NCBI GenBank assembly: GCA_016282375.1
Contig: JAEEKI010000016.1
Location: forward strand, 1-39,218
Length of the DNA stretch: 39,218 nt
Source of the DNA: Caryophanales bacterium
GTDB lineage: Bacteria > Bacillota_I > Bacilli_A > RF39 > UBA660
Direction: 5' to 3'
Shown: one piece after another, positions 1 to 34,798 of the stretch
Position numbering within the stretch: the first letter of the stretch is position 1
Layout of the letters: every line of letters begins with the position of its first letter
The notes under the pieces: model-generated
The model's database searches: none
Told to the model about the DNA's origin: nothing
The model's input: the letters and a program-made list of their open reading frames with translations, nothing else
Program-made: the position numbers and the translations under genes

Positions 1-955
1 TTATTCCCACATCGATAAAGGCTTGATATAACGCTTGTTTGGCACTGGCTTGTTGTTCTGATGTTAAAGTACTATTTAATGTATGTCCACTTAATCCATA
101 TTGCGTATATGGTTGACTTAAACATATTTCGTTTCCTTCATATGTTATACATGTATAATATTTACTACTGTCTTGGCCGATATAGACATTATGGCCTGTT
201 GCTGTTCCACTAATTTGTAATGTTCCCCCATAATTTGGATAGGTACATGGATTATCATATGTACAGGTACTTGTATCAAACCAATAACTTGTTGGGCCTG
301 GTATGGTTACTGTTCCTGCTACACAAGAGACATTGGCTACTTTAAATCTTCCGGCATATGTTTTACCGGATAACGCACTTTGATCTTGAATAGCATTATA
401 AAACTTACTTGTGAGTGTCCATACAGCTGTACTTGTTGCACTACCTATTCCATCAATTTGCGCACCACTTACCACTGTTGCGGCATAGTTTGTATATGTA
501 AGACTAGATAAATCTGTTTCACTTTTAATATTGTTTGTTCCTTCTGATACGTGCGCATTACTTGCTAATGTTCCTTGAATTGTAAACTCATTACCTGTTA
601 CTCCACTTGTATGAGAAGTATACTTATCCGTTGAAGTCCATTCATAAATGATATTATACGTACATACCATACTATAATCAGTATTTGCCGTGAAGTTTAC
701 AGTTAGTGTAGTATTATTCTCGGCAGCCACATTACCTTGTTTAGCTTCTACCATATTGGATGCCGTTACATTAAGAAGCATATCTCCACCTAAGGTATCA
801 AACACCATGTTATTTTGCTCGGTTACGGTATTAGCATTTACCACATTAGTTATATTTAAATTACCAGTGGCAAAATACGCATACGTTGCTCCAATAATAA
901 ATGTTAGTAAGGTAACTATGGCGATAACTATTAATACAATGTTATTCTTTTTCAT
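1..955 (-). CDS. Surface protein with TasA/SipW-like N-terminus, cut at window start
   Basis: The reading frame is open from an ATG at 955 down to the window edge, giving 318 codons with the C-terminus missing. The N-terminus is a short basic stretch, then a hydrophobic segment ending GATYAYF. This resembles the signal region of TasA/camelysin-type proteins, so the product is probably exported. Residues 1 to about 210 closely match the N-terminal module of the leucine-rich-repeat protein at 33203-34798 (shared stretches such as TTGNLNITNVVNANTVTEQN with one change, MVCTY, SGVTGNEFTIQ). The visible C-terminal part (SGTATGHNVYIGQ, LSQPYTQYGL, KQALYQAF) matches the C-terminus of the protein at 20160-21281. 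The Shine-Dalgarno is AGAGGTG upstream of 955. The specific function is unknown, and the mosaic build is the notable feature. Confidence 0.85.
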   Translation of the reverse strand, partial: MKKNNIVLIVIAIVTLLTFIIGATYAYFATGNLNITNVVNANTVTEQNNMVFDTLGGDMLLNVTASNMVEAKQGNVAAENNTTLTVNFTANTDYSMVCTYNIIYEWTSTDKYTSHTSGVTGNEFTIQGTLASNAHVSEGTNNIKSETDLSSLTYTNYAATVVSGAQIDGIGSATSTAVWTLTSKFYNAIQDQSALSGKTYAGRFKVANVSCVAGTVTIPGPTSYWFDTSTCTYDNPCTYPNYGGTLQISGTATGHNVYIGQDSSKYYTCITYEGNEICLSQPYTQYGLSGHTLNSTLTSEQQASAKQALYQAFIDVGI

Positions 956-1026
956 ATAAACACCTCTATTATTTATAATCAAATCTTAACACAACTATAT
1001 AATATTTACAATGACATCTTACATAT

Positions 1027-1887
1027 TTATTTCCTAGTAATTATAAATATCTTATCAAATAGTTTATGTAATAAAGATAATATAAAAATAACAAAATAAA
1101 TACCAATATTTAAATCAAGAAAGATGCATATAAAACTTAATATTCCCAGTATAATACCATATAAATAACATCCCCCTTTTGTATAGGGACTAAACATTAA
1201 TAAAGGTGCAATAAACACACTAGCAAAAAGAAAATTATTATTCATATATAAATCTAAATTAACATGACGAGTAATAATACTATATATGATTAATAAAATA
1301 TAAAAAGTAATAATTCCTGATATAGGAATGTGTTTTTTATAAGAATACTTGAAACATAATACTACTAAACTTAATAAAGAAAAAAGCCATAAAGTATTAG
1401 AAATACCACCTGGTCCTTGGCCAATAAGGTAATCTAATATTGAATATTTATGTTCTACGGATAATTCTAAAGTATTTAAGAAAGTATAATGTTTAGTAAT
1501 AAGTTCGTAGACAAAAACTATAATCATAAAAACTGGAACAATATTAATTTTTAAGAAACAAAAAATAATATTTAAAATAATTAATGAAGTAACATACACT
1601 AGCAAATTTATGTTAGGCATTACTACAAGAGAAATTAAGATGTTTATTAATAAAATATAAGAAAAGAATCCTTTTTTCTTAATAAGAGAAAAAATAATAG
1701 AAATAATAATACTTATTAAAACTAAGTATAAAGGTTTAAACATCATTACCATTGATACTAAATCTTTACGATATAAATGAATTCCATTTTTATAAAATCC
1801 ATATAACATAAATGGTAATAATAAACCAAGTATTACTTTAACTAGACTCTTTTCATTTTGACCACTATGAAGATAAACTCTATTCAT
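1027..1887 (-). CDS. RnfD-like membrane subunit, divergent
   Basis: A 286-residue polytopic membrane protein with about eight or nine hydrophobic segments. The segment DYLIGQGPGGISNT, and the C-terminal stretch FLFASVFIAPLLMFSPYTKGG followed by another helix, follow the pattern of RnfD/NqrB subunits (LGxxPGSIGETS; the P-T-P-region helix pair). RnfD normally carries FMN bound to a threonine in an SGAT motif and I cannot find that motif here. The start at 1887 is chosen because GGAGGG lies five bases upstream; a longer frame to 1950 has no ribosome site. The gene overlaps the end of the rnfC-like gene by eight bases, so the two are translationally coupled. No rnfG, E, A or B follows; the next gene encodes a surface protein. 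Family assignment is fairly secure, electron-transport function is doubtful. Confidence 0.7.
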   Translation of the reverse strand: MNRVYLHSGQNEKSLVKVILGLLLPFMLYGFYKNGIHLYRKDLVSMVMMFKPLYLVLISIIISIIFSLIKKKGFFSYILLINILISLVVMPNINLLVYVTSLIILNIIFCFLKINIVPVFMIIVFVYELITKHYTFLNTLELSVEHKYSILDYLIGQGPGGISNTLWLFSLLSLVVLCFKYSYKKHIPISGIITFYILLIIYSIITRHVNLDLYMNNNFLFASVFIAPLLMFSPYTKGGCYLYGIILGILSFICIFLDLNIGIYFVIFILSLLHKLFDKIFIITRK

Positions 1888-3037
1888 GATTTCCCTCCAA
1901 AAAAGCCCGAAGGTTAATATGACTTGGACATATATAAGAACATAGACCACAATTAATACAATTTGAGGATCTAACTCCCGTATCCATTACCTTTTTAGGA
2001 TTAACACGAACCGGACAAATTTTGTAACACATTCCACAGTTTATACAACTATTTTCTTTAATCTCTTCATCAGGTATAACTATTAAACCAATTGTATTCT
2101 TAGTTACCATGGTCTTTTCTATTTGGCATGGGCTTCCAGTCATTAAACCATCTAAAATAAACAGATTATTACCTTTATTATTAATTTTAAACTTATTATT
2201 AATAATATCTTTCATTAAGGTACCAACCTTAACTTTTAAAACCATTGATTTAACTAAACTTGGACCAGCAATTGTAATAAAAGTTTCATATGTAAACTTA
2301 TTATATTTAATAGCATTATATAATTCATACATCGTTTTAGCATCAATTACAAAAGAATCTATATCTTTTAAATCCAAATACTCAAGTAGAAAAAAAGGCG
2401 TTGCTAATAAATACTTATCTTCGATTAAACGAAGAGATATATTAGGATATGTTCCAATCTTAGATAAAAAGGTTTCAATATTATCCGTATTATTACTCTT
2501 AATTACAATACTTGTATTTTTAATCTCAAAACTACTAGCTAAAATATCCGCCATTTCTAAAATCTCACGATGGTATTTTTTTAAAACATAAGCATTATTT
2601 TGAATATATGGTTCATCATCAAAACCACTGATAACTAGATTATTAATCTTTTTAGTTTCTAAGGTGCTTGCAACATATTTAAAATAATATTCATATAATC
2701 TACTAATTATAAAATCTCGATCATATTTATTATCTTTATATTTACGATTCTTCTTCTCTTCTTCTTTAAAATCGTTTTCAATTACAATAGCATTTCCTGG
2801 TCTACCATCAACATTTAAAGTTGTCATCCCAATAATTTTTCCTGAGATAGGACTAACTATTTTATTTAAATTATCCTCTAAAAGAATTGTCCCTTTATAA
2901 ACATATTCATTGGTTTTAACTAAAGTTTTATAATTCTTTTTCATGGGAATATAAAGATAGTCAGCATCTAAATACTCCACTATATTACTATTATAAACGA
3001 TATCAATATTTGTTTTTAATTTCGTTAATTTTCTCAT
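1880..3037 (-). CDS. RnfC-like iron-sulfur protein lacking the NADH/FMN loop
   Basis: This 385-residue protein has the RnfC order: an N-terminal barrel-sandwich (residues 40-92, ending NAIVIEND), a middle region with GFDDEPYI (137-145, equivalent to the NgaECEPY motif), an SLBB-like segment with GLMTGSP and TKNTIGLIVI, and two C-terminal 4Fe-4S motifs (Cys 331/334/337/341 and 360/363/366/370, each CxxCxxCxxxCP). In RnfC the GGAGFPT loop that binds NADH and FMN precedes the ECEPY motif; here that place reads YVASTLETKK. The iron-sulfur relay is therefore intact while the hydride-accepting site looks lost. The gene is first in a pair with the rnfD-like gene. The upstream sequence has a TATAAT at about 3050 but no convincing -35 or Shine-Dalgarno. 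Confidence 0.8.
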   Translation of the reverse strand: MRKLTKLKTNIDIVYNSNIVEYLDADYLYIPMKKNYKTLVKTNEYVYKGTILLEDNLNKIVSPISGKIIGMTTLNVDGRPGNAIVIENDFKEEEKKNRKYKDNKYDRDFIISRLYEYYFKYVASTLETKKINNLVISGFDDEPYIQNNAYVLKKYHREILEMADILASSFEIKNTSIVIKSNNTDNIETFLSKIGTYPNISLRLIEDKYLLATPFFLLEYLDLKDIDSFVIDAKTMYELYNAIKYNKFTYETFITIAGPSLVKSMVLKVKVGTLMKDIINNKFKINNKGNNLFILDGLMTGSPCQIEKTMVTKNTIGLIVIPDEEIKENSCINCGMCYKICPVRVNPKKVMDTGVRSSNCINCGLCSYICPSHINLRAFLEGNHE

Positions 3038-14841: not shown

Positions 14842-14866
14842 AGGCTTAACCTTTTAAGTTAAACCT
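14842..14866 (-). terminator. Terminator after surface protein gene
   Basis: AGGCTTAAC (14842-14850) pairs with GTTAAACCT (14858-14866) including one G-T pair. Six T follow on the minus strand. The stem touches the stop codon of the gene. Confidence 0.75.
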
Positions 14867-16284
14867 CACCAAACAATTTTATAAGGATCATCAAATGTTC
14901 CAGTACCAGATAACACTACATTAGATGGTAAATGGAAAGTTGGATAATAGTAATAATTACTAGTTGTTGCTACTGTTGTCGTGGTTCCTGTTGATGATAT
15001 GTATCTAACACGATTGTTATATGCCCCTGAAGGCGAAATTGTATAATAGTTAACACTTTTAAATAAATAATTAGAATTCTTACAGTTTGAAGCATATGTA
15101 TCACTATAAGAAGAGGCATGGTTACAAGAACCAGTTTCATAACTACCATATAAGAAGTCACTACCATATATGAAGCCAATTTTATCATAAGAATACAACG
15201 GCCAACTATCGGAATATTTTACACCAGTTAGTCTTTCTTTTTCATAATAAGTTGCCGGTGTAACACTAGAACTTGAAGGACTTGTTAAATACCATTTTGT
15301 TGTCAGCATTTTATTAGCTACATTCACAACTGCCTCGGTAGTAATGTAGGTGTTATTTAAGACCTCTCGGGCATGACTTACTGACCAATCGCCGATTGTT
15401 CCGAAAGTAGATTGATGAGAATAGGAACTCTTCATAACTTTTAATAATTTTCCTGTATAATATGTATCACCATCTTTGGCTTCATCTTCCATAATCCCAA
15501 TAATACGATACATATAAGCACTAGTACATGAATCTTTAAAACAAATATAATTATTGGGATTTTTTCCCTCATAACGATAACCATTTTCGTTCTTAACTGT
15601 CCAAGGATTACTAGAACTATCCGTATTTGAAGATCCCACCAAAGACAAAACTTTTAAATATGCAGTAGTACCATCAACACATCCCGTTGATTGAACTCTA
15701 ATAGTACCTTTAATATTTTTGTTGGCATTAATTTGTTGTTCAAAATCATAATTGTAATAAACAATTTGGAATTGAATAGTTTGGGTTTTACTTGCTGAAG
15801 CATTGGCTGATATAGTGCCATGAGTTATAGTGTAACTTGACCCAGCAGCTTTATTACGTAAGTCAAAAGCAAAATGCGAATTTTCACCATCGGATCCTCC
15901 AATACTATCTTCTCCCTCAATGACAAGTTCTGGTAAGTTTTCCGTATTATCAGGACTTAAAACAAAAGTGTCACTTCCTATGGCTGGTTGATAGATAATT
16001 TCATATCCACATGTAATATTTCCTGGACTATTATTAGTTAATTGCACAGTAATAGATGTTGGACTACTAATACCTAATACGGTTTCGTTAACTGGATAAT
16101 AAGGATTGGTAGTGAAGTTTAATTCAGCAGGTAAAGAAATTGTATATGAAATTCCTGACAAGTTACCAACTGCAATGTTAGCATTTACTCTTACAACAGA
16201 AAAATACGCATAAGATGCGCCAATAATTAAACTAACCATTAGAATAAGAGTAATAACTAACACTATTATTTTTTCTTTTTTCAT
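14866..16284 (-). CDS. Surface protein with TasA/SipW-like N-terminus and DPYKIVW end
   Basis: A 472-residue protein. The N-terminal hydrophobic segment ends GASYAYFSV, like TasA/camelysin signal regions. A beta-rich module with paired cysteines follows (GYEIIY, QSTGCVDG). The second half starts at YRYEGKNPNNYICF and contains YRIIGIMEDE and WSVSHAREVLNN, and it ends FHLPSNVVLSGTGTFDDPYKI plus VW. It is rich in Ser, Thr and Tyr, as expected of an extracellular protein. No LPXTG-type anchor is present. Function is unknown. It lies eight bases after the permease gene, so it may be co-transcribed with it; AAGGAA provides the ribosome site. Confidence 0.8.
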   Translation of the reverse strand: MKKEKIIVLVITLILMVSLIIGASYAYFSVVRVNANIAVGNLSGISYTISLPAELNFTTNPYYPVNETVLGISSPTSITVQLTNNSPGNITCGYEIIYQPAIGSDTFVLSPDNTENLPELVIEGEDSIGGSDGENSHFAFDLRNKAAGSSYTITHGTISANASASKTQTIQFQIVYYNYDFEQQINANKNIKGTIRVQSTGCVDGTTAYLKVLSLVGSSNTDSSSNPWTVKNENGYRYEGKNPNNYICFKDSCTSAYMYRIIGIMEDEAKDGDTYYTGKLLKVMKSSYSHQSTFGTIGDWSVSHAREVLNNTYITTEAVVNVANKMLTTKWYLTSPSSSSVTPATYYEKERLTGVKYSDSWPLYSYDKIGFIYGSDFLYGSYETGSCNHASSYSDTYASNCKNSNYLFKSVNYYTISPSGAYNNRVRYISSTGTTTTVATTSNYYYYPTFHLPSNVVLSGTGTFDDPYKIVW

Positions 16285-20159: not shown

Positions 20160-21281
20160 CTAATTCAATTTCTCACAAGCCGCATGTTCATTGGCATCTA
20201 CTAAACAGTTTTCATAGTCATTGTAATCTCGACAAGCCACATAACCTCGTGTATCTATTCCACAATAAATATCATCTACACTACAGTAAGATTGACTACT
20301 GGTAACACCACAATCATTATTAATATCAATTGTTATTCCTGCATCAACAAAGGCTTGATATATTGCTTGTTTAACGGCTGTTTGTTGATTACTAGTAAAA
20401 TTATTACCTATTGTATGTCCTTCTAATCCATATTGTGTATATGGTTGACTAAAGCATAGTTCATGGTTTTGATATATCATACACGCATAATACTTAACAC
20501 TATTTTGGCCAATATATACTCTATGTCCAGTCGCAGAACCGCTTATTTGTACTGGTCCACCAGTTGTAGGATGCGTATAAGTTTGTACATACGTACCCAA
20601 AGAATTATTCCATACAGAGTATGTAGTTGGGAACCAATAACTGGTTGGGTGGTTACTAGAACTCCCACATTCACTGTTAGTGATTGATATTGTTCCATAT
20701 GGAACTTGACCTCCTGCATCATTCTGATCAACATTTAGATTATAAAAAACAGTATAAAATGACCATTTTTGTTCAACAGTGTGTACTGATGAACTTGTAC
20801 TTATAGATGTTGAATATAAAATAATTGCGTTAGAACCAGCAATAGGTATTTCAAATTGTTGGACTCCATTCAGTACACCAACTAGTGTAAGTTCGTTTAA
20901 GTTGGCTGCTACGGAAGCTGCACTTGGTACATATGCCACTGTCGGCGTATAAACAAGATCATAACTGCATGATAGTCCCGTTGCAAACTGATTTGAGTCA
21001 GTAGTCAATGTAACATTAATATTACTGGGATCACTATTCACATGCGAATTATAATTGTTTGTAGCATTGGTTATCGACAAATCATCATCTGTTATTTCCA
21101 ACTGTACAAAAGCTTTGTCTCTATCATAACTTAGGGTAGCATTACCATATATAGTAACATTTACATTAGTATTCCCCGTAACAGTCGGTCTGCTTCCATA
21201 AGCAAAAGTAACAGCAAAAATAACTGTTAGTATAACCATGACCACAATGCTTAGAATATAATACACTTGCCTTTTATTCAT
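20160..21281 (-). CDS. Surface protein sharing its C-terminal module with the gene at 1-955
   Basis: A 373-residue protein. The N-terminal hydrophobic segment ends FAVTFAYGS, a variant of the TasA-like signal region. A Ser/Thr-rich beta module follows. From about residue 240 the sequence (SGSATGHRVYIGQNS, FSQPYTQYGLEGHTIGN, KQAIYQAFVDAGI) matches the gene at the window start. The last 55 residues carry seven cysteines, likely disulfide-bonded outside the cell. No sortase motif is present. The ribosome site is AGAGGA, and a promoter lies at 21299-21327 inside the terminator of the kinase gene. Function is unknown. Confidence 0.82.
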   Translation of the reverse strand: MNKRQVYYILSIVVMVILTVIFAVTFAYGSRPTVTGNTNVNVTIYGNATLSYDRDKAFVQLEITDDDLSITNATNNYNSHVNSDPSNINVTLTTDSNQFATGLSCSYDLVYTPTVAYVPSAASVAANLNELTLVGVLNGVQQFEIPIAGSNAIILYSTSISTSSSVHTVEQKWSFYTVFYNLNVDQNDAGGQVPYGTISITNSECGSSSNHPTSYWFPTTYSVWNNSLGTYVQTYTHPTTGGPVQISGSATGHRVYIGQNSVKYYACMIYQNHELCFSQPYTQYGLEGHTIGNNFTSNQQTAVKQAIYQAFVDAGITIDINNDCGVTSSQSYCSVDDIYCGIDTRGYVACRDYNDYENCLVDANEHAACEKLN

Positions 21282-25224: not shown

Positions 25225-26166
25225 TTATCCTGTTACACGTTCAAAAGTTAATGAAGCACCAAAGTTTTTATTACCATTAACAATTTGGTTATGATTGTAA
25301 TTAATTAATGTAATTTCTGCGAAATAATAATCAGTTTTGCTACTGTTATTAACACTAATTGTTTGATTTGTTAATAAACTAACATTTGAACTAGCAGCAG
25401 CGGTAGTTAAATCAGCGGTAGCAACTGGTATATAGCAAAAAGAATCTTGAAATTTAGCTGGAACCCAAGTATTATCACCTGTACAACCTGATTGTGTTGT
25501 AATACCTGCAACTATAGCATGAAGTTTATTAACACATATACCATTAGTTTCACATGTAGCTTGTGCAGAAATTGTTTCATCAGCTTTATATAAATCAATT
25601 ACCAACTCTGCTGCATCTTCGCTTACCCACATGTTACGATTATCTGTTAAACAACCAACTTCATTATTACTGAATGCTCCATCTACGACATCTGGAGTTC
25701 CTGAAAAGCATGCTCCTCCATCATTTGTTTTAGCCCAAATATTGCTATTTGATGTACATTCATTTTGTGTAACGCCAGTAACTTCCGTTGACTTTCTATA
25801 ACAAGTTCCTGAAGTATACTCAAAGTTATTACTTGCAACTGTAACATATGCATTATAAGTATATGTAACTTGTACACCAGTGGCAGATTGCAAAGTTATA
25901 GTTGCTTCGGTATTATCTACTTGGTTACCTGAACCAGAATAGAAATTATCTAAGTCAGCATATACCTCCATATCGCTGCCGGCATTAATCAAAAACATAT
26001 CATTGCCAGCATTAGTAGCGGCTTGGATATTTGATTGACCTTCAGAGTTTACTTGACTAGCCAAATATGCGAATGTTGCACCTACTAAAACAATTAACAT
26101 CGTAGCTATGGCAATAACCGTTAGTAAAACTACATTTCTCCGTGAATCTTCTCTTTCTTCATTCAT
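25225..26166 (-). CDS. Surface protein with TasA-like N-terminus
   Basis: A 313-residue protein with an unusually charged N-terminus (MNEEREDSRRN), then a hydrophobic segment ending VGATFAYLAS. The exported part has a repeated feature: GTCYRKSTEVTGVTQNEC and GICVNKLHAIVAGITTQSGC share spaced cysteines. The end (INYNHNQIVNGNKNFGASLTFERV) is beta-type. No anchor motif was found. AAAGGAGGAT and a near-consensus promoter (26194-26222) suggest strong expression. It lies upstream of the phosphorelay but is separated from it by a terminator. Function is unknown; it could be a filament-forming or envelope protein. Confidence 0.8.
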   Translation of the reverse strand: MNEEREDSRRNVVLLTVIAIATMLIVLVGATFAYLASQVNSEGQSNIQAATNAGNDMFLINAGSDMEVYADLDNFYSGSGNQVDNTEATITLQSATGVQVTYTYNAYVTVASNNFEYTSGTCYRKSTEVTGVTQNECTSNSNIWAKTNDGGACFSGTPDVVDGAFSNNEVGCLTDNRNMWVSEDAAELVIDLYKADETISAQATCETNGICVNKLHAIVAGITTQSGCTGDNTWVPAKFQDSFCYIPVATADLTTAAASSNVSLLTNQTISVNNSSKTDYYFAEITLINYNHNQIVNGNKNFGASLTFERVTG

Positions 26167-33202: not shown

Positions 33203-34798
33203 TTATGCTCCTAATGAAGTACCAGTAAATACATCCGAACCTAAAGTTCCACCATAGGCTGATGTAAACCCTGACTGTGTTGTATATGTATTACCATTAT
33301 ATATAACCGATGATAAATAAGTACAATATCTGAATGCATAATTATCAATACTTGTTACACTACTTGGTATGGTTATTGAGGTTAAACCTGTTCCTCTAAA
33401 AGCATTACTACCAACACTTGTTACACTGCTTGGAATGGTTATTGACGTTAAACTACTACAATCTTGAAATGCAATATTAGGAATTGTTGTTATATTACTT
33501 GGTAACGTTGCAGAAGTTAAATTTTTGCATCCTTGAAAAACACCGGTTCCAAGTGAAGTTACGGTATCTGGAACGGTTATCGATGTTAGGCTTGTATTAC
33601 TATAAAAAGCATAACTACCAATACTTGTTACACTACTTGGTATGGTTATTGACGTTAAACTTCTACAACCGTAAAATAAAGAATTCGGTATTGTTGTTAT
33701 ATTACTTGGTAACGTTGCAGAAGTTAAATTTTTGCAATTATTGAAAACATTGGTTCCAAGAGATGTTACACTATCTGGAATGGTTATTGATACTAAATAA
33801 GAATCAGAAAAAGCATTATTACCAATTGTGGTTACACTACTTGGAATGGTTATCGATGTTAGGCGTGTACTATTAAAAGCAGAAACGCCAATACTTGTTA
33901 CACTACTTGGAATATTTACCGATTTTAAGTAAGATAGATTATAAAAACTTCTATCACCAATCGAAGTAATTCCATTCTCAATTACAACACTTTCTATAGA
34001 ACTCCTTTTTGCATCCCATGGTTGATCAATCATTGTTGGATAATTTGGCATAGCTCCTGTTCCCATTATTTTAAGAGTGCCGTTATCATCTAATGTCCAA
34101 GTTATATCTTCATTAACGTTGCCACTTGCTATAACGGTTGTTTCAACCTCACCTGCTACACATGCGACATTCGCTATCTTAAATTTCCCTGCAAAGTTTT
34201 TTCCATCTAAAGCCGTTTGACTCGCCTTTACATTATAAACTCTACTTATTAAGTTCCATACAGCTGTACTAGTTGTGTTCCCCGCACCTGATATTTGGGC
34301 TCCACTTACAATTGTTACACTATTATTGTTATATGTTAAGGTTGATAAATCAGTTTCTTCGGTTACGATGCCAGCACCATTAATCGTATTTTCCGCATAT
34401 GTTTGAAAGGCTTGAATGGTAAATTCATTACCCGTTACGCCTGGACTATGAGTTGTATACCTATCACTACTTGTCCATTCATAAACTATATCATAGGTAC
34501 ATACCATGCTATAATCTGTATTGGGTGTAAAATTAACCGTTAAAGTTGTATTATTAGAAATAGCCGCTACATAATTAAAGGCCGCCCCATCAGCCATTTT
34601 AGCTAACGACATATTAAGGGACATATTTCCCCCAATTACATCAAACACCATATTATTTTGCTCAGTTACTGTATTGGCATTTACGACATTAGTAATATTT
34701 AAATTACCAGTTGTAAAGTAAGCATATGTAGCAAAGGCAGCAAAAGATAAAAAGACTATCACAGCTATAATCATCATAATAATATTCTGTTTTTTCAT
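33203..34798 (-). CDS. BspA-type leucine-rich-repeat surface protein
   Basis: A 531-residue protein. Residues 1-215 are nearly collinear with the protein at 1-955, including the hydrophobic segment ending FATYAYFTT. After a short linker (ITWTLDDNGTLKIMGTGAMP), residues 260-515 form about ten BspA-like LRR_5 repeats of 22-23 residues built on LTSITIPSSVTSIG-AF. Such repeats bind host or microbial ligands in gut and oral bacteria. It ends at FTGTSLGA without anchor. Neighbouring repeat units are highly similar in DNA, so unequal recombination is likely. The promoter is at 34818-34846; ribosome site AGGTGG. Confidence 0.92.
   Translation of the reverse strand: MKKQNIIMMIIAVIVFLSFAAFATYAYFTTGNLNITNVVNANTVTEQNNMVFDVIGGNMSLNMSLAKMADGAAFNYVAAISNNTTLTVNFTPNTDYSMVCTYDIVYEWTSSDRYTTHSPGVTGNEFTIQAFQTYAENTINGAGIVTEETDLSTLTYNNNSVTIVSGAQISGAGNTTSTAVWNLISRVYNVKASQTALDGKNFAGKFKIANVACVAGEVETTVIASGNVNEDITWTLDDNGTLKIMGTGAMPNYPTMIDQPWDAKRSSIESVVIENGITSIGDRSFYNLSYLKSVNIPSSVTSIGVSAFNSTRLTSITIPSSVTTIGNNAFSDSYLVSITIPDSVTSLGTNVFNNCKNLTSATLPSNITTIPNSLFYGCRSLTSITIPSSVTSIGSYAFYSNTSLTSITVPDTVTSLGTGVFQGCKNLTSATLPSNITTIPNIAFQDCSSLTSITIPSSVTSVGSNAFRGTGLTSITIPSSVTSIDNYAFRYCTYLSSVIYNGNTYTTQSGFTSAYGGTLGSDVFTGTSLGA
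33340..33960. repeat. LRR-coding tandem DNA repeats
   Basis: Units of about 66-69 bp coding for LRR_5 repeats. A higher-order pair is visible: the block near 33480-33560 (TTACTTGGTAACGTTGCAGA and following) recurs near 33690-33770 with few changes. Confidence 0.8.

What the first reader, a model, noticed from the sequence alone, without database searches (positions are those of the whole stretch)
1027..3037. Two-gene rnfC/rnfD-like operon lacking both flavin sites
The RnfC-like protein keeps both 4Fe-4S motifs but the GGAGFPT nucleotide/FMN loop is replaced by an unrelated stretch, and ECEPY reads DDEPY. The RnfD-like partner lacks an SGAT flavin-attachment motif. No rnfG, E, A or B follows. 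An iron-sulfur/membrane pair without the NADH site and without covalent flavin suggests a repurposed electron conduit or a different donor such as ferredoxin or flavodoxin.
Basis: partly seen in the sequence, partly recalled or inferred. Interest (0 to 1): 0.6.

Follow-up and report, generated by a model that had tools for sequence, protein, structure and literature searches.

The report
Flavin-stripped two-gene remnant of Rnf
A family of small-genome gut bacteria has shrunk the six-subunit Rnf respiratory pump to two conserved proteins that have lost the known flavin-binding features but still keep two iron-sulfur clusters, so annotation as Rnf would wrongly suggest these bacteria have an ion pump.

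Summary
A translationally coupled rnfC-like/rnfD-like pair lies at 3037..1027 (-). RnfC keeps both 4Fe-4S motifs. All four FMN/NADH-site motifs are gone, not just the loop. RnfD has lost the covalent-FMN threonine and the riboflavin Asp. RnfA, B, E, G and ApbE are not detected in the genome (85% complete). It is not a local accident. In 193 genomes of the order, 17 have full Rnf and 75 have only C+D. Among those 75, none has RnfA/E, RnfB or an FMN_bind domain, and 2 have ApbE. Sixty RnfC proteins, the window's included, form one clade (SH-aLRT 100) in which every member has lost both the RnfC FMN loop and the RnfD FMN threonine. All 83 RnfC examined keep eight cluster cysteines, and dN/dS is 0.08 (C) and 0.27 (D). 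Intermediates show stepwise cofactor loss, with at least seven presence/absence changes of RnfA/E on the tree. A further step, an FeS-less and D-less RnfC remnant under purifying selection, occurs in five genomes beside uvrC. Best reading: a retained output half of Rnf, probably fed by ferredoxin. Acceptor unknown; electron conduit inferred, not shown. Rival: an Fe-S-regulated transporter. New variant of a known kind.

The parts
1880..3037 (-). rnfC-like gene, 385 aa: RnfC/NuoF-like body plus C-terminal ferredoxin domain
   Evidence: homologues in 83 loci
1027..1887 (-). rnfD-like gene, 286 aa, helical membrane protein; start revised to the ATG at 1887
   Evidence: PF03116 54 bits over cut-off 27.7; order-wide matches; start read from the sequence and from close relative L035
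1880..1887 (-). ATGAATAG: rnfD start overlapping rnfC stop (translational coupling)
   Evidence: read from the sequence; rnfC and rnfD ORFs overlap in 77 of 83 loci, the rest 0-30 bases apart
2648..2695 (-). stretch where the RnfC loop GGxGFPTxxK (FMN/NADH site) is deleted (approximate)
   Evidence: alignment: the F of the loop is a gap in 60 of 60 clade members; intact in 16 of 16 full-Rnf and 9 of 9 canonical
2606..2620 (-). DDEPY, from ECEPY (residues 140-144)
2393..2413 (-). YLLATPF where canonical RnfC has YPxGxE (third FMN-site motif lost)
2333..2347 (-). IDAKT where canonical RnfC has QNVxT (fourth FMN-site motif lost)
2012..2047 (-). 4Fe-4S motif 1, CINCGMCYKICP (residues 331-342)
   Evidence: both motifs intact in 83 of 83 RnfC-like proteins
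1925..1960 (-). 4Fe-4S motif 2, CINCGLCSYICP (residues 360-371)
1438..1467 (-). shortened RnfD linker without SGAT; covalent-FMN Thr absent (approximate)
   Evidence: Thr position is a gap in 60 of 60 clade members
1543..1545 (-). Asn115 of RnfD-like, equivalent of the riboflavin-binding Asn (kept)
   Evidence: N in 48 of 60
1201..1203 (-). Leu229 of RnfD-like, where canonical RnfD has the riboflavin-binding Asp (lost)
   Evidence: Asp in 20 of 60, Leu in 24 of 60

Best explanation
The pair is a vertically inherited remnant of the output half (RnfC+RnfD) of the Rnf ion pump. In this family of small-genome Bacilli the Rnf complex was dismantled stepwise: RnfA/E/B first, then RnfG and ApbE, then the covalent FMN of RnfD, then the FMN/NADH site of RnfC and often the riboflavin Asp of RnfD. 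What remains is a two-cluster iron-sulfur protein docked on a membrane protein. Most likely it works as a one-way, one-electron conduit: reduced ferredoxin (made by pyruvate:ferredoxin oxidoreductase) gives electrons to the RnfC clusters, which pass them into RnfD and on to a non-covalently bound, unidentified acceptor in or across the membrane. It cannot be the Rnf pump: the RnfA/E centre, RnfG and the NADH site are absent. Shown here: gene content, loss of sites, cluster cysteine conservation, purifying selection, one clade. Inferred: docking as in Rnf, electron flow, ferredoxin as donor, existence of an acceptor.
For: C and D are adjacent on one strand in 83 of 83 loci and overlap in 77. 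Both 4Fe-4S motifs are intact in 83 of 83. dN/dS against L035: C 0.126/1.64, D 0.268/0.976. RnfA/E, RnfB and FMN_bind are in 0 of 75 C+D-only genomes against 17 of 17 full-Rnf genomes; ApbE 2 of 75 against 15 of 17. FMN sites are intact in full-Rnf RnfC, mostly intact in intermediates, and lost in 60 of 60 of one clade with SH-aLRT 100. In the known structures the RnfC clusters link RnfD riboflavin to the RnfC FMN (PMC9588780; PMC12174285). In the FeS-less RnfC remnants no rnfD lies alongside, so cluster and RnfD are kept or lost together. POR_N is in the own genome and in 69 of 75.
Against: No acceptor cofactor can be named: the riboflavin Asp, whose mutation kills A. woodii Rnf (PMC11889175), is Leu in the window and non-Asp in 40 of 60. 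No redox partner gene is conserved next to the pair. Pyruvate:ferredoxin oxidoreductase is almost as common without the pair (91 of 97). FeS-less, D-less RnfC bodies under purifying selection show that at least part of RnfC can be kept for a non-redox reason.
Confidence: 0.45

Rival explanations
1. Fe-S-regulated transporter or channel: RnfD shares the fold of urea/ammonium transporters; with both flavins gone its two vestibules became a solute or ion path, and the RnfC clusters act as a redox or Fe-S sensor that gates it.
For: RnfD/NqrB is structurally related to ammonium/urea transporters (PMC12174285, PMC9588780). At former FMN-contact positions the clade has polar or aromatic residues: E185 to S/T (49 of 60), G237 to N/S/E/D/T, S284 to Y (36 of 60). 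Conserved polar residues lie at the N-terminal YKNG motif and in the former linker.
Against: The hydrophobic gate positions of RnfD (L32, L240, F244 of C. tetanomorphum) remain mostly L, F, F in the clade, so nothing shows an open path. YKNG is already present in the family's full-Rnf RnfD. No substrate is suggested by the neighbourhood.
Confidence: 0.22
2. The RnfD-like protein still binds riboflavin (Asn kept), so the pair is an ordinary ferredoxin-to-riboflavin-to-outside electron exporter that lost only its covalent flavins and its NADH site.
For: Riboflavin Asn kept in 48 of 60 and Asp in 20 of 60; earlier-branching C+D pairs keep Asp or Glu more often. A loss of the RnfD flavinylation site is known in Nqr/Rnf-like complexes.
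Against: In the window itself the Asp is Leu. N123A and D249A each abolish A. woodii Rnf.
Confidence: 0.17
3. Cofactor-independent scaffold: the RnfC-like body has a non-redox role, as proposed for NqrA, and the clusters are structural.
For: FeS-less, D-less RnfC remnants in five genomes of two genera at the same place after uvrC, dN/dS about 0.06-0.1 within g17, matched by the 60-clade profile at E 1e-25 to 3e-31.
Against: Eight cluster cysteines are kept in 83 of 83 proteins whenever RnfD is there.
Confidence: 0.12
4. Decaying, useless leftover of Rnf on its way out.
For: Half the family has no detectable pair; each step is a loss.
Against: Purifying selection and cysteine conservation at about 30% pairwise identity; intact frames in nearly all genomes although the genomes are small.
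Confidence: 0.04

Closest known systems
Rnf complex (RnfABCDGE), output half RnfC-RnfD
   Same: Homologous RnfC and RnfD, adjacent in the same order; two 4Fe-4S clusters in RnfC; descent through in-family intermediates
   Different: No RnfA, B, E, G or ApbE; no FMN site in RnfC, no covalent-FMN site in RnfD, riboflavin Asp often lost; no NADH site; cannot pump by the known mechanism
Nqr/Rnf-like two-subunit complexes (eLife 2021 66878; bioRxiv 2024.03.13.584918)
   Same: Reduced to one half of the circuit; RnfD-like membrane part lacks its flavinylation site; proposed one-way electron export
   Different: Those have an RnfG-like flavinylated subunit and an NqrF-type NAD domain fused to the RnfD-like part; here neither exists and the cytosolic partner is an Fe-S RnfC without NAD site
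NqrA (Na+-NQR)
   Same: An RnfC relative that lost its redox cofactors; parallels the FeS-less remnants seen here
   Different: NqrA works in a complete six-subunit pump and has no clusters; the window protein keeps both cluster motifs
PrdC (proline reductase-associated RnfC-like protein)
   Same: RnfC-like domain outside an Rnf complex (match E 2e-11)
   Different: Far below the PrdC cut-off (43.5 against 490 bits); here paired with RnfD

Membership tests
Rnf complex | RnfC with FMN/NADH site (GGxGFPT, ECEPY, YPxGxE, NVxT) | tested here: not met
Rnf complex | RnfC C-terminal ferredoxin domain with two 4Fe-4S motifs | tested here: met
Rnf complex | RnfD of PF03116 with covalent-FMN threonine | tested here: not met
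   PF03116 met, threonine absent
Rnf complex | RnfD riboflavin-binding Asn and Asp | tested here: not met
   Asn kept, Asp is Leu
Rnf complex | RnfA and RnfE (PF02508) | tested here: not met
   absent in own genome and in 75 of 75 C+D-only genomes
Rnf complex | RnfB (PF04060) | tested here: not met
Rnf complex | RnfG / FMN_bind domain and ApbE | tested here: not met
   only a sub-cut-off PF04205 match in own genome
Rnf complex | Ferredoxin:NAD+ oxidoreductase activity coupled to ion transport | not testable with these tools
   needs biochemistry
Nqr/Rnf-like two-subunit complex | RnfD-like membrane domain fused to NqrF NAD domain (PF00175), with flavinylated RnfG-like partner | tested here: not met
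   no PF00175 in either protein; no FMN_bind in genome above cut-off
NqrA/NqrB of Na+-NQR | NqrA without clusters, in an operon with NqrB-F | tested here: not met
   cluster motifs present; no PF02508 in genome
RnfC / RnfD protein families (homology only) | Significant similarity along the protein to RnfC and RnfD | tested here: met
   series of intermediates

The most novel reading that the evidence does not exclude
A respiratory electron-transfer module was stripped of all its flavins and turned into an iron-sulfur-controlled membrane transporter or sensor, an evolutionary reversal of the RnfD fold towards its transporter relatives, and in some lineages then reduced to a cofactor-free RnfC body with a new role.
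Probability: 0.2. Interest if true: 0.85.

Novelty: new variant of a known kind. Interest (0 to 1): 0.6.

Why it matters
Annotation pipelines that see RnfC or RnfD here may credit these gut bacteria with an ion-pumping Rnf complex that they do not have. The family holds a graded natural series from full Rnf to a flavin-free Fe-S/membrane pair to a cofactor-free RnfC body, which makes it possible to ask directly what RnfC and RnfD do without the rest of the pump, including the disputed question of whether RnfD itself can move ions.

Tried and rejected
Artefact of contig end: the window starts at the contig end, but 80 relatives show the same two-gene locus, often with dnaG downstream. Pseudogene: rejected by dN/dS and cysteine conservation. 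Complete rnf elsewhere: rejected. Thioredoxin, sortase and surface-protein neighbours recur in some loci but are not consistently next to the pair. FeFe hydrogenase: in 33 of 75 C+D-only, 1 of 17 full-Rnf and 23 of 97 other genomes, absent from the own genome; suggestive of hydrogenase replacing Rnf as ferredoxin oxidant, not a partner of the pair. Plasmid search found only distant RsxC-like matches. Literature: the Tenericutes study found in the search reports Rnf well kept in Izemoplasmatales and a wastewater group and, in the passages read, does not describe this pair; no description of a C+D-only system was found, in an open-access library only. Phylogenetic caveat: deep nodes of the RnfC tree are weak and the remnants sit on long branches next to a long-branch row.

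Full report
What is there. The window is the end of a 111,956-base contig of a 1.08-Mb, 24-contig genome estimated 85% complete. On the minus strand an rnfC-like gene (3037..1880) is followed by an rnfD-like gene. The mechanical ORF starts at 1950, but the ATG at 1887, overlapping the rnfC stop as ATGAATAG, matches the start in the closest relative (L035, 81% identical RnfC, a sheep-rumen Bacilli MAG). RnfC is recognised by TIGR01945 (131 bits, under the 246 cut-off) and by 7zc6_C (E 3e-22). RnfD is recognised by PF03116 over its cut-off. Downstream of rnfD there is a secreted-type surface protein (2..982) and then the contig ends.

What is missing. RnfA/E (PF02508), RnfB (PF04060), RnfG (PF04205 over cut-off) and ApbE (PF02424) are not found in the genome. 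The same searches over 193 genomes of the order (all of one family) give a clean pattern. 17 genomes have full Rnf: RnfA/E 17/17, RnfB 17/17, FMN_bind 17/17, ApbE 15/17. 75 have PF03116 without any of RnfA/E, RnfB or FMN_bind (0/75 each) and ApbE in 2/75 (Fisher p 6e-21 for FMN_bind and 3e-15 for ApbE against full Rnf plus g6). These genomes are mostly 89-99% complete, so this is not an assembly gap. 97 genomes have no PF03116 match. One genome (G010) keeps a degenerate RnfA-like protein only. In other orders of the class nearly all PF03116 matches are strong, canonical ones; a few weak ones outside the order were not followed.

Two-gene locus. In 80 fetched loci plus L035, L036 and the window, C and D are adjacent and on the same strand in 83/83, with ORFs overlapping in 77. 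In many genomes the pair sits between uvrC and dnaG-rpoD, sometimes with a surface protein and a sortase-like protein inserted behind rnfD.

Cofactor sites. All 83 RnfC-like proteins keep both CxxCxxCxxxC motifs. With C. tetanomorphum RnfC in the alignment, the four FMN/NADH-site motifs are intact in 9/9 canonical and 16/16 full-Rnf proteins of the family. They are mostly intact in nine C+D proteins on other branches and in the earliest-branching members of the window's group. In the 60-member clade that holds the window, the loop Phe is a gap in 60/60, ECEPY is commonly DDEPY, and the YPxGxE and NVxT motifs are lost or altered. In RnfD the FMN threonine is present in 10/10 canonical, 16/16 full-Rnf and 3/3 g6 proteins and is a gap in 60/60 of the clade. 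The riboflavin Asn is kept in 48/60, and the riboflavin Asp is kept in 20/60 and is Leu in the window. These residues are the ones seen in the C. tetanomorphum and A. woodii structures, and mutating the riboflavin pair abolishes A. woodii Rnf.

Order of loss. Full Rnf in this family is C, a D-G fusion (about 470 aa), E, A and a very short RnfB (83-94 aa). Genus g6 has C and the D-G fusion with the FMN threonine of RnfD and ApbE but no A, E or B. Others have C with an intact FMN site and D without G or SGAT. The window's clade has neither. The RnfC tree supports the 60-row clade (SH-aLRT 100, branch 0.51) inside a 69-row group (100) that includes g6. Presence/absence of RnfA/E needs at least seven changes on that tree; deep nodes are weak. 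At the far end, four g17 genomes and G124 carry, at the same place after uvrC, a 275-279-aa RnfC body without the ferredoxin domain and without rnfD. It is matched by the clade's profile (E 1e-25 to 3e-31), falls inside the loop-less clade (long branches, caution), and has dN/dS about 0.06-0.1 within g17.

Selection. Window against L035: C dN 0.126, dS 1.64; D dN 0.268, dS 0.976. C and D distances correlate across the clade (Spearman 0.36; mean identity 0.33 and 0.29), which shared descent alone would also give.

Mechanism. In Rnf the RnfC clusters bridge RnfD riboflavin and RnfC FMN. With all recognisable flavin sites damaged or gone and clusters strictly kept whenever RnfD is present, the economical reading is that the clusters still exchange electrons with something in RnfD, fed by ferredoxin. 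PFOR is present in the own genome and in 69/75, but this is not specific to the pair. The acceptor is unknown. An Fe-S-gated transporter is the main rival because of the transporter fold and the polar residues that replace FMN contacts. The cofactor-free remnants show that the RnfC body can be kept without any cluster, so a non-redox component is likely in at least one lineage.

Relation to what is known. By homology these are RnfC and RnfD. As a system it fails the tested definition of Rnf and of the published Nqr/Rnf-like two-subunit complexes, which keep an RnfG-like flavinylated subunit and an NAD domain. No report of a C+D-only, flavin-free pair was found in the searched open-access library. 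The taxonomic name (RF39-like uncultured gut Bacilli) is my inference from genome size, relatives' titles and general knowledge, not a tool result.

Noticed in passing
L151:5220-6047, L152:4607-5434, L153:4809-5636, L155:2190-3017, L154:4833-5672: RnfC-like ORF of 275-279 aa after uvrC lacking the whole 4Fe-4S domain, with no rnfD alongside and no PF03116 match in those genomes; under purifying selection in g17.
   Followed up: partly
L115-L119: Full Rnf of this family has a fused RnfD-RnfG protein (about 470 aa) and, where the gene lies in the stretch, a very short RnfB (83-94 aa) with one hydrophobic N-terminal stretch and one PF04060 domain, lacking the poly-ferredoxin part.
   Followed up: partly
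L114:4569-5138: G010 keeps only a degenerate RnfA-like protein that seems to have lost its first cluster cysteine, with C and a G-less D: a possible snapshot of Rnf decay.
   Followed up: no
window 2-982, 14866-16284, 20160-21281, 25225-26166, 33203-34798 (minus): Several secreted-type proteins with a similar N-terminal hydrophobic stretch, most ending in A-T/S-Y-A-Y-F, one with leucine-rich-type repeats; they look like SipW/TasA-like surface proteins.
   Followed up: no
L041, L043, L055, L060 behind rnfD: A variable large surface protein and a sortase-like protein inserted between rnfD and dnaG in some genomes.
   Followed up: no
order-wide: FeFe hydrogenase is nearly exclusive with full Rnf (1 of 17) but common in C+D-only genomes (33 of 75).
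   Followed up: partly
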